Part shown: piece by piece, positions 24,450 through 43,164 of the stretch
Numbering within the stretch: position 1 is the first letter of the stretch
How the letters are laid out: every line of letters starts with the position of its first letter
IMG/VR virus record: IMGVR_UViG_3300033571_009592
Span: 1 to 51,643 of that record
Strand: one strand, 5' to 3'
From: a virus
Length of the DNA: 51,643 bases
Position numbers and translations under genes: made by a program
The notes under the pieces: model-generated
Database searches by the model: none
What the model was told of the DNA's origin: nothing
The model's input: only the letters and a program-made list of their open reading frames with translations

Positions 24450-24968
24450 ATGAAAAGAATAGTAAAATTAACTGAGAATGATATTAGAAACGTAGTTAGA
24501 AAAACTATGAATGAGCTGAATAAATCAACATATGAAAGTGCGGCATCTAAGGCAATAGAAAAAGGTGATGAGGGATTAGCAATGAAATTTTTAAATCATT
24601 CTAATGAAATGGGTATCGATGATATTCAAGGTAATGATTATCATAGTAGGGGAAATAGATATATGTTCTTCTCAAATTTAGAACAAATGAGAAGACAATG
24701 TGATATGTTATTAGATATGGATCCCGAAATGGTTGAAGGTATTTTAGAAAATGGTCATGATTGGGCACAAGATCACATATCTGAAGCTAAAAATAATATG
24801 GATCAGGTGTTTGATTTTTTAATGAACGAAACTAAAAGAAAAGGTAGTGGGTCAACTGAAGATATGATGAACGAAAGGTGGACTCAAAAATATAAAAGAT
24901 CTATAAATTGTAATAACCCAAAAGGTTTTTCACAAAGAGCACATTGCCAAGGTCGTAAAAAAAAATAA
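24450..24968 (+). CDS. Propeptide-tagged protein with basic Cys tail
   Basis: 172 residues. The N-terminus MKRIVKLTENDIRNVV leads to VRKTMNE, a possible M-N-E cut after residue 22; FLMNE and DMMNE occur later. The C-terminus CNNPKGFSQRAHCQGRKKK is a short basic block resembling tails on other large-phage proteins, perhaps DNA- or zinc-binding. Middle helices are acidic. Likely internal head protein. Confidence 0.6.
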   Translation: MKRIVKLTENDIRNVVRKTMNELNKSTYESAASKAIEKGDEGLAMKFLNHSNEMGIDDIQGNDYHSRGNRYMFFSNLEQMRRQCDMLLDMDPEMVEGILENGHDWAQDHISEAKNNMDQVFDFLMNETKRKGSGSTEDMMNERWTQKYKRSINCNNPKGFSQRAHCQGRKKK

Positions 24969-24978
24969 ATATTTAGTT

Positions 24979-26682
24979 ATGAAAAAGAAAATATTAATTA
25001 CTGAAAACCAATTTAAAAAATTATTAAATAAGGGTAGTAAAAGGTATTTAAATGAATCGGAAAATGTTTCTCAAATGAGTAAACCTAGTGGTGATAAACT
25101 AGAGTTTCCTGAATGCCCTGAAGGACAATATTGGGACTTCACCAAAAAAAAATGTGTAGACTATGGTTTTAGTAAATATGATACACCTAAAGTATACACT
25201 GACACTTATAGTGGTATGGATGATTATTTCGCAAAACAAAAAGAATTATTTTATAAACAACTAAATGATACTAGAGAAAAAGATAAAAAAGTAATAGAAC
25301 CTTATTTTAAAAGAGCGAAAGATTATTGGAGAAACAGGTTAAATGATCCAATAACCAGAAGTAAACACAAAGAACAGTTTAATCTAACTGATGAACAAGT
25401 AGAGAATAAATTTAAAAATTATTTAACTGTTATTGATAATACTAAATTAGAAATGATTAATAGATATGGATCATCAAAAGGTACTTACGCATTTATTTCA
25501 GACGCATATATTGATAGTGACTTAAATAAAAGTGGTATGGGTACTATTTTTCAAACAGAATACGACTCTTTGATTAGTGCGGGTAGTAATGAAGTCGCTG
25601 CGTGGTTAGGTAGTTTAGTTTCTACAATTTCGGGTGGTAACGACATAAACGATTGTAGGGTATTCATACCATCACCTTTAATTGGTGTACTTGCATATTA
25701 TGAACAAACTTTTGTGCATGAGATGACACACTTGTTAGATTCTAGGGTTGGACCTTTAACCTCATCAGAGGTTTTGGGAAAATCATTCCCAAAAACAGTA
25801 GATAAAGAAGGGATTTCGGTTGAGGATATAAAGAAATCAAATAAAGTATTGGCTAATTATTCTGTTTATGTTCCTGATGAATCGGATATGGAATTGGATA
25901 TACCGAAAGATTTGAAGTTAGATTTAAATAAAGGTATATCTGACTTTATGAAACTAAGTACTTCATCCACTAAAAAAAATTTATCGGCCGCTAGAGCCAA
26001 AACTATGATAAAAAAATTGTTAAATGTGATGGAAGCAGATAATAATAAATCTTATGATTGTGATTATATGGAAAAAACTGCAAATGTTACAGAAATAAGA
26101 AGTTCTTTAAATCTATCACCTGGTGAAAAACTAGAATGGGCTGGAGTTGTTTTATCTTACTTTAATGACGGATGGGTAGTTACTTCAAATAAAAAACAAC
26201 ATAAAAAAATAGAAACATTACCAGTATACAGAATTTTATCATGTTGGATTTGGAATAATTTTACACCAGATTTACAAACATTATTTGAAAATATTGATAA
26301 TTTTGTGATGAGTAAAGAAGAAAAAGGGATTAAAACTACATCACCATTAAATGATAAAAATTTAGAGTTGGCACATTATATAAGAAAAAACATTAAAGAT
26401 TATATATTTGAGAGAAATGATACTCAGTTACCATTTGAAGAAAATAAAGTAAATGGTTTTTTTATTAGAACATTTTCTAATGATGTTGAAGATACTGAAC
26501 TTGTTTGGCATAGAGATAAGGAAGATAGGGTAGTGGAAAGTGTGGGACATACTGATTGGATGATACAAATAGACAATGAATTACCAAAACCACTTACAGA
26601 AAGAACATTCATACCAAAAGAAAAATATCATAGAGTTATTAAAGGTAGTGGCGATTTAGTGGTTAGGGTTAAAAAATTGTAA
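24979..26682 (+). CDS. Propeptide-tagged zinc metalloprotease with cupin-like C-terminus
   Basis: 567 residues. The tag MKKKILITENQFKKLLNKG continues to RYLNE (predicted cut after residue 26). ECPEGQYWDFTKKKCV (45-60) is a small disulfide-type motif. TFVHEMTHLLDSR contains HEMTH (His247, Glu248, His251), a zincin HExxH site in a helix. The last 80 residues (LVWHRDKEDRVVES, WMIQIDN, RTFIPKEKYHRVIKG) look like a cupin-type barrel. Predicted to be packaged in the capsid and delivered or used during maturation; the protein target is unknown. Confidence 0.7.
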   Translation: MKKKILITENQFKKLLNKGSKRYLNESENVSQMSKPSGDKLEFPECPEGQYWDFTKKKCVDYGFSKYDTPKVYTDTYSGMDDYFAKQKELFYKQLNDTREKDKKVIEPYFKRAKDYWRNRLNDPITRSKHKEQFNLTDEQVENKFKNYLTVIDNTKLEMINRYGSSKGTYAFISDAYIDSDLNKSGMGTIFQTEYDSLISAGSNEVAAWLGSLVSTISGGNDINDCRVFIPSPLIGVLAYYEQTFVHEMTHLLDSRVGPLTSSEVLGKSFPKTVDKEGISVEDIKKSNKVLANYSVYVPDESDMELDIPKDLKLDLNKGISDFMKLSTSSTKKNLSAARAKTMIKKLLNVMEADNNKSYDCDYMEKTANVTEIRSSLNLSPGEKLEWAGVVLSYFNDGWVVTSNKKQHKKIETLPVYRILSCWIWNNFTPDLQTLFENIDNFVMSKEEKGIKTTSPLNDKNLELAHYIRKNIKDYIFERNDTQLPFEENKVNGFFIRTFSNDVEDTELVWHRDKEDRVVESVGHTDWMIQIDNELPKPLTERTFIPKEKYHRVIKGSGDLVVRVKKL

Positions 26683-42048: not shown

Positions 42049-42426
42049 ATGGATAAACTATCTCATATAATAAAAGGAATATTAAATGAAGAAAATGAAA
42101 AAATTCATTTATACAATAAGATTGCTAATGTACTTAAACCTCCTTATATTTTTGATTTAGAAAATAATTTTGATTTAAATTATGACGACATAATTCCGAT
42201 AGTGGAATTAATTTTAAATGAAAAAATTAATACTAATAACTCACAGTATGGTGTGGGTGGTGATACTTATTTACTTAATGATAATAATAGTTTAATTTAT
42301 TATGAAGAGTTTGATGGGTCAGATTGGGTCATTAGGAAATTTGATAAAAATAAAAATTTGGTGGGGTATGCAGATATTGAGGGAGAATGGTACATAGATA
42401 AAGATGGGAATGCAATAAAATTATGA
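42049..42426 (+). CDS. Propeptide-tagged putative capsid protein
   Basis: 125 residues. Tag MDKLSHIIKGILNE, predicted L-N-E cut after residue 14. A short helical module (NNFDLNYDDIIPIVELI) and an acidic/aromatic beta domain (LIYYEEFDGSDWVIRKFDK) follow. First of three tagged genes in a row, overlapping the next by 4 nt. Confidence 0.6.
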   Translation: MDKLSHIIKGILNEENEKIHLYNKIANVLKPPYIFDLENNFDLNYDDIIPIVELILNEKINTNNSQYGVGGDTYLLNDNNSLIYYEEFDGSDWVIRKFDKNKNLVGYADIEGEWYIDKDGNAIKL

Positions 42427-42716
42427 GAAGTTTAATTAAAAAAATACTTAAAGAGGAGTTCAATAAAGAACATGATATTTGTAATATTATGAGTGTTAAG
42501 ACATATGAAGAAGGTATTAGATTATTAAAAAATTATTTAGGGACTATTAAAGAAAATCCTGAGGCGTGGGATGAAATAAAAAAACCGTTACAAATGTGGA
42601 GAGAAGCAACGCAAGAAATTAGATCAGAATTAGATGAATACGGTATGTCTGGTGATTCTGAAGTAGATGAATCTAATACTTGGTGGTCCGCAATACAAAG
42701 TACTTTTTGTAAATAA
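42423..42716 (+). CDS. Propeptide-tagged small protein
   Basis: 97 residues. Tag MRSLIKKILKE, predicted cut after residue 11. The mature part is helical and acidic, ending in DESNTWWSAIQSTFCK. No known domain. Confidence 0.6.
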   Translation: MRSLIKKILKEEFNKEHDICNIMSVKTYEEGIRLLKNYLGTIKENPEAWDEIKKPLQMWREATQEIRSELDEYGMSGDSEVDESNTWWSAIQSTFCK

Positions 42717-42723
42717 ATTTAAT

Positions 42724-43164
42724 ATGGGTATAAAAAATAACATACGAAAAATACTTAAAGAAGAGACAAATAAGAATATTTCATCTAATTCTGAATATAT
42801 TAGGGAAAAATATAATGTACCCACTAGAATTTTTAAACTTATAGAAACTGTATCAGATAAATTAATAGATTCTACGACAATAAAAAAAGAATTTGGTAAT
42901 GTATACCTAATAAAAATAGGTGATTTTAAATATTCTTATGAGATGTATGTTAATTTTACCGATGAAAATGGTAATGTGATTGATAGTGAAACATCTTTCG
43001 AAAAATTTTATACAACTTATATGAATTACATTCTTAAAGAATCTATATCAATATTAAAAGAAGATTTAGGTATTGACACCGATTTTAGAACGTTTACAAA
43101 TTTATCTGTTAGTTTATTTGAACTAATAACACAAAAAATAAAAAATAAATATTTTAATTATTAA
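42724..43164 (+). CDS. Propeptide-tagged putative capsid protein
   Basis: 146 residues. Start at 42724 gives the tag MGIKNNIRKILKE (predicted cut after residue 13); the longer in-frame start at 42667 would bury it. The mature chain is mixed alpha/beta without recognisable motifs. Last gene before a strong terminator. Confidence 0.6.
   Translation: MGIKNNIRKILKEETNKNISSNSEYIREKYNVPTRIFKLIETVSDKLIDSTTIKKEFGNVYLIKIGDFKYSYEMYVNFTDENGNVIDSETSFEKFYTTYMNYILKESISILKEDLGIDTDFRTFTNLSVSLFELITQKIKNKYFNY

What the first reader, a model, noticed from the sequence alone, without database searches (positions are those of the whole stretch)
24979..26682. Packaged-looking zinc metalloprotease fused to a cupin-like domain
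An HEMTH zincin site (residues 247-251) lies in a protein that carries the LxE tag and ends in a WHRDKEDR/FIPKEKYHR cupin-like segment. A protease carried in the virion could act on host proteins at injection or in head maturation. The combination is not one I recognise from characterised phage proteins.
Basis: partly seen in the sequence, partly recalled or inferred. Interest (0 to 1): 0.72.

Follow-up and report, generated by a model that had tools for sequence, protein, structure and literature searches.

The report
Virion-tagged zinc protease in marine phage
This gene of a marine virus of bacteria encodes a previously unnamed kind of zinc-dependent protein-cutting enzyme that carries an address label like those used to pack proteins into the virus head, so it is probably injected into the host; its link to a small second domain is a one-off recent gene fusion.

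Summary
In detail: ORF 24979-26682 (567 aa) has HEMTH at 247-251, an N-terminal tag ending LNE|S, and a C-terminal WHRD...YHR module. The zincin part is real. It belongs to a family of IMG/VR phage proteins, absent from Pfam, PHROGs, NCBIfam and PDB sequences, in which HExxH and a downstream E-x-x-x-N (E365, N369; the gluzincin ExxxD pattern with Asp changed to Asn) are invariant in all eight members aligned (22-61% identity to the window). Every member with a resolved N-terminus carries an [LI]xE tag, but of different types, so the tag is swapped as a unit. A 254-kb relative has a T4-type prohead protease and capsid protein whose propeptide ends in the same LNE|S. This supports head packaging by a T4-like route; no virion data exist. 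The 'cupin' combination is not an architecture: the module is a stand-alone ~86-aa gene in nearly all of 51 loci, and a 90%-identical relative has it intact with no protease. In the window the protease gene was inserted and fused in frame at a ~17-bp overlap. Most likely function: head-packaged, injected metallopeptidase effector in an exchangeable cargo slot. Target unknown. Fold support is weak (pLDDT 57; best PDB match the zincin Zmp1, Z 6.3).

The parts
24979..26682 (+). Whole ORF, 567 aa: tag + zincin domain + cupin-like module
24979..25056 (+). N-terminal tag MKKKILITENQFKKLLNKGSKRYLNE, predicted capsid-targeting propeptide cut after LNE (residue 26)
   Evidence: same tag class on neighbours; MCP propeptide of relative ends LLNE|ST
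25057..26412 (+). Zincin (gluzincin-like) metallopeptidase region, residues 27-478
   Evidence: family alignment; model
25717..25731 (+). HEMTH active-site motif, residues 247-251
26071..26085 (+). EKTAN, residues 365-369: predicted third zinc ligand E365 and N369 (E-x-x-x-N)
   Evidence: invariant E339, K340, N343 in first-sequence numbering of A6
26404..26412 (+). IFE (residues 476-478), candidate internal prohead-protease site, aligned with LSE in L070; inference only
26428..26444 (+). Fusion junction: zincin-gene homology (L070) ends at 26444, cupin-gene homology (L001) begins at 26428
26428..26679 (+). Cupin-like module, residues 484-567; conserved H511, D513, H551
24450..24968 (+). Upstream tagged gene (172 aa), directly followed by the stand-alone cupin-like gene in L003 and L006
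42423..42716 (+). 97-aa tagged gene; in relatives L071 and L075 the zincin gene lies directly after its homologue
42667..43164 (+). Different tagged gene that occupies that slot in the window

Best explanation
The ORF encodes a zinc metallopeptidase made as head cargo by a T4-like phage, probably of a Bacteroidota host. Proposed steps: (1) the N-terminal 26 residues bind the prohead core; (2) the phage's gp21-type prohead protease cuts after LNE, releasing the mature protease inside the head; (3) it is ejected with the DNA; (4) it cleaves one or more host proteins (defence or take-over targets) early in infection. The gene is a swappable cargo cassette: relatives carry it at another slot, with another tag, inside a polyprotein, or not at all. 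In this phage it landed in front of a small cupin-like gene and fused to it in frame. Shown: gene, motif, conservation, tag swapping, insertion and fusion, T4-type protease and capsid in a relative. Inferred: zinc binding, packaging, cleavage, injection, host target.
For: HExxH plus ExxxN invariant in eight relatives. Close family members show fewer changes at codon position 2 (0.21-0.23) than at position 3 (0.38-0.44), so the gene is maintained. All zincins with a resolved N-terminus have an [LI]xE tag, but of at least two unrelated types: ITENQFKKLL/KLTESDLLRIVKRVINES and MKNLREEIQKIKKMMGIINE. The 254-kb relative has a PF03420 prohead protease (E 4e-24) and a Gp23 capsid protein whose propeptide ends LLNE|ST. 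Slot variability: zincin present or absent between 90%-identical phages, and a different neighbour set in the G002, G003, G004, G006 and G032 records. T4 precedent: CTS propeptides target internal proteins to the head, many are ejected, and internal-protein sets vary among relatives (PMC9026906). Zincin domains are the commonest domain of predicted injected 'polyvalent' proteins (PMC5512222).
Against: No proteomics for any member. The window itself is a 51.6-kb fragment in which no head genes were identified; the head-gene evidence comes from a relative. The model is weak (pLDDT 57) and Foldseek found no significant fold match. No member has a known target. A role in processing other phage cargo cannot be excluded.
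Confidence: 0.6

Rival explanations
1. Head-maturation or cargo-processing protease: the zincin acts inside the prohead or after injection on other tagged phage proteins, or on its own polypeptide, instead of on host proteins.
For: In L070 the zincin sits in a 1003-aa polypeptide between other tagged segments; zincins in polyvalent proteins are proposed to autoprocess (PMC5512222); a conserved uncharacterised zincin in group 1 jumbo phages was suggested to aid maturation (PMC7824862).
Against: The lineage already has a gp21-type prohead protease; the zincin is missing from many related records and changes place, unlike core maturation genes; most members are single tagged proteins with no recognised second domain to release.
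Confidence: 0.2
2. Peptidoglycan- or envelope-acting enzyme used at DNA entry: subfamily B has an N-terminal segment that by eye resembles a peptidoglycan-binding domain.
For: Segment VQDFLIxxGxxIxKDWDFGxxTAKAL in L104, L106, L058 and L059; this resemblance is from memory.
Against: No Pfam match to any peptidoglycan-binding family for L058 and L059; the window protein and subfamily A lack the segment; a head-interior tag is an odd route for a tail-tip enzyme.
Confidence: 0.1
3. The zincin and cupin-like parts work together as one enzyme.
For: They form one uninterrupted ORF; in L017 an unrelated tagged HEVQH protein lies directly upstream of the stand-alone cupin-like gene.
Against: Stand-alone cupin-like gene in nearly all loci, with many different upstream genes; stand-alone zincin in L056, L057 and L071-L073; the fusion is seen only in the window, at a short junction overlap.
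Confidence: 0.08
4. The HExxH protein is a catalytically dead or non-protease fold.
For: Low-confidence model, no significant Foldseek hit.
Against: Both predicted zinc-ligand histidines, the catalytic Glu and a downstream Glu are invariant at 22-25% overall identity; the top VIA-align match is the zincin Zmp1 (Z 6.3, next row 3.2).
Confidence: 0.07

Closest known systems
T4 internal head proteins (IPI, IPII, IPIII, Alt) with capsid targeting sequence
   Same: Short N-terminal propeptide ending in a hydrophobic-x-Glu site, T4-type prohead protease and capsid in the lineage, variable set of cargo genes among close relatives.
   Different: Tag is about 26 residues, longer than the 10-19 of T4, and of different sequence; cargo is a metallopeptidase, not an anti-restriction or ADP-ribosylating protein; packaging not shown.
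Zincin-like MPTase domains of polyvalent proteins (N4 vRNAP, P1 DdrB; Iyer et al. 2017, PMC5512222)
   Same: HExxH zincin with a second-helix Glu, predicted to be delivered with phage DNA; L070 shows a multi-segment version.
   Different: Mostly single proteins with a cleavable-type tag; no sequence match found in the libraries searched; whether it falls in one of the 12 published clades was not tested.
M13 gluzincins (neprilysin, M. tuberculosis Zmp1)
   Same: HExxH plus ExxxD-like motif (EKTAN here; the M13 motif ENIAD is from memory); Zmp1 3zuk_A is the best structural match, Z 6.3, rmsd 3.7, 104 aligned.
   Different: Asn in place of Asp, about 113 residues between the two motifs, no sequence similarity in PDB searches.
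Stand-alone ~86-aa cupin-like proteins of Flavobacterium phage immuto (gp173), Methylophilales phage Melnitz (gp19), Tenacibaculum phage pT24 (gp010)
   Same: Homologous to the C-terminal 84 residues, with conserved WHxD and HR motifs.
   Different: Separate untagged genes annotated as hypothetical proteins.

Membership tests
Zincin (gluzincin) metallopeptidase | HExxH motif conserved in the family | tested here: met
   invariant in 8 of 8
Zincin (gluzincin) metallopeptidase | downstream Glu as third ligand with +4 Asp (ExxxD) | tested here: inconclusive
   Invariant E365 and N369 (ExxxN) in 8 of 8; Asp replaced by Asn; ligand geometry not measured
Zincin (gluzincin) metallopeptidase | zincin fold: HExxH helix and second helix bearing the Glu | tested here: inconclusive
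   HEMTH in helix 213-230 and EKTAN in helix 337-350 of the model; pLDDT about 60-72 there; Zmp1 Z 6.3; Foldseek not significant
Zincin (gluzincin) metallopeptidase | zinc-dependent proteolysis | not testable with these tools
   needs assay with E248A control
T4-type CTS-tagged internal head protein | short N-terminal propeptide ending in [LI]xE before a small residue | tested here: met
   YLNE|S at 23-27; all family members with a resolved N-terminus tagged
T4-type CTS-tagged internal head protein | T4-type prohead protease and capsid in the phage | tested here: inconclusive
   Present in relatives G004 (both) and G032 (capsid); the window is a fragment in which they were not found
T4-type CTS-tagged internal head protein | presence in virion, cleaved | not testable with these tools
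   needs mass spectrometry
Polyvalent protein (Iyer et al. 2017) | several unrelated enzymatic domains in one polypeptide | tested here: inconclusive
   window fusion is private; L070 has several segments with internal tags
Polyvalent protein (Iyer et al. 2017) | MPTase of one of the 12 published clades | not tested
   published alignments not held
Cupin superfamily | small beta-barrel with metal-binding motifs | tested here: inconclusive
   H511-x-D513 and PxGxxH-like H551 conserved to distant members; no Pfam or PDB profile hit; module not folded with an alignment

The most novel reading that the evidence does not exclude
Tagged cargo genes of these phages fuse into polyproteins whose parts, each with or next to an [LI]xE site, are cut apart by the head protease inside the capsid, so that one ORF delivers several effectors (here a zincin and a cupin-like enzyme via IFE|R; in L070 at least three parts).
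Probability: 0.2. Interest if true: 0.65.

Novelty: new variant of a known kind. Interest (0 to 1): 0.45.

Why it matters
If packaged, this is a protein-cutting enzyme delivered with phage DNA by a T4-like route, in an unnamed family with a clear active site and a short, testable address tag. It would give a direct handle on what marine flavophage-type viruses inject, and the tag would let many unknown cargo proteins in these genomes be recognised. The fusion is a clean example of how cargo genes are captured.

Tried and rejected
Pfam, PHROGs, NCBIfam and PDB sequence searches with the whole protein and its parts gave nothing above chance; the phmmer match of the cupin-like part to the repeat protein MITSUBA-1 was treated as chance because the 29-sequence profile gave no hit. 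Single-sequence folding failed (pLDDT 36). A mixed zincin+cupin alignment misaligned and was not folded. Foldseek against PDB and BFVD gave no significant match. Scans of bacterial and archaeal genomes found no relative; these scans need short exact peptide matches, so distant relatives could be missed. A HEMTH-only DNA pattern found nothing. I rejected E372 (in TEIR) as third ligand because subfamily B lacks it. Sequencing artefact as the cause of the fusion: unlikely, since the reading frame is open throughout and the 3' end of the zincin gene matches L070 up to the junction, but a single assembly cannot exclude it.

Full report
Observation. The ORF at 24979-26682 encodes 567 residues with HEMTH at 247-251, a tag ending in LNE|S at 24-27, and WHRD (510-513) and YHRV (550-553) near the C terminus. 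Composition predicts 0.008 HExxH motifs. The window is a 51,643-base virus record, 28.9% G+C.

The C-terminal module. Residues 484-567 match an 86- to 93-residue stand-alone protein in nearly all of 51 IMG/VR loci. The exceptions carry different partners or extensions: a PAP2 phosphatase domain in L039 and a zinc-ribbon-like segment in L007 and L040. Cultured-phage homologues are immuto gp173, Melnitz gp19 and pT24 gp010. H511, D513 and H551 are kept even in the most distant ones, which fits a small cupin-like metal site. The fold was not established.

The fusion. L001 is about 90% identical to the window on both sides, but there a tagged 89-aa gene is directly followed by the stand-alone cupin-like gene with its own ATG, and no protease. 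L003 and L006 show the same arrangement. In the window about 1.45 kb is inserted. Homology to the zincin gene of L070 runs to 26444 and homology to the cupin-like gene starts at 26428, so the two parental genes overlap by about 17 bases at the junction. The combination is therefore best read as a recent private fusion, not a conserved architecture.

The zincin family. Residues 27-478 have relatives in other phage records: 477-aa single proteins at 58-59% identity (L056, L057, L071-L073), a segment of a 1003-aa protein at 61% (L070), and a second subfamily at 22-25% (L058, L059, L104, L106). H247, E248, H251, E365, K366, N369 and R374 are invariant. E365-x-x-x-N369 has the spacing of the gluzincin E-x-x-x-D motif (established for thermolysin and neprilysin; from memory), with Asn for Asp. 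Codon changes between members show constraint on position 2. No family library searched holds it.

Structure. An eight-sequence AlphaFold2 model of residues 27-481 has pLDDT 57. HEMTH lies in helix 213-230 and EKTAN in helix 337-350 of the model. Foldseek found nothing significant. VIA-align put the zincin Zmp1 first at Z 6.3 (104 aligned, rmsd 3.7; next row 3.2), with another HExxH peptidase, ACE2, lower at Z 2.7. Z below 8 is not proof, and residue-level equivalence could not be read, so this is weak support only.

Packaging. Neighbouring window genes carry the same class of N-terminal tag ending in [LIM]xE; a narrow tag pattern is confined to N-termini in the window. All zincins with a resolved N-terminus carry a tag, but of different sequence types, as expected if the tag is an address label joined to exchangeable cargo. 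The 254-kb relative G004 has a PF03420 prohead protease and a Gp23 capsid protein whose propeptide ends LLNE|ST, the same site as in the window protein. T4 uses such propeptides to load proteins into the head, cuts them with gp21, and ejects many of them into the host; the set varies among relatives (PMC9026906; PMC5694885).

Cargo exchange. In G002, G003, G004, G006 and G032 the zincin lies in a second tagged-gene cluster beginning at the homologue of window 42423-42716; in the window another tagged gene fills that place. Tagged HExxH proteins of other families also occur (L017 HEVQH, L061 HEITH, L104 HEFDH).

Function. The best reading is a head-packaged metallopeptidase injected to cut host proteins. 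Precedents for zincin domains in injected phage proteins are N4 vRNAP and P1 DdrB (PMC5512222; PMC12633501). Processing of phage cargo is the main rival. L070, where the zincin lies between tagged segments and is followed by FLSE|RN, and the window, where it is followed by IFE|RN, leave open that fused cargo is cut apart in the head; this is inference.

Verdict. It is a new family acting in a known kind of system.

Noticed in passing
L070:5488-8499: 1003-aa ORF with two internal copies of the tag-like sequence NIILTEDQYKKL around the zincin: a possible cargo polyprotein.
   Followed up: partly
L039:5398-6429: Cupin-like module fused behind a PAP2 phosphatase domain (Pfam E 1.4e-15), another fusion of the same module.
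   Followed up: partly
L017:5178-6014: Unrelated tagged HEVQH protein (278 aa) 4 bases upstream of a stand-alone cupin-like gene.
   Followed up: no
L104:8836-9909 and L061:51-785: Further tagged HExxH proteins of other families in the same phage group.
   Followed up: no
window:38909-47720: Second cluster of tagged genes, with tag types MKNLxEEIxRIKxIMG and IxxIL(K/N)EE.
   Followed up: partly
window:36238-37545: 435-aa protein with signal-peptide-like start and a C-terminus that by eye resembles a Bacteroidota secretion (T9SS) sorting tail, hinting at the host.
   Followed up: no
L002:4701-6011: 436-aa ORF that runs in frame into a second tagged protein (MKRVKLTEKDLYRIVRETLNEES), another apparent fusion of tagged genes at the same site.
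   Followed up: no
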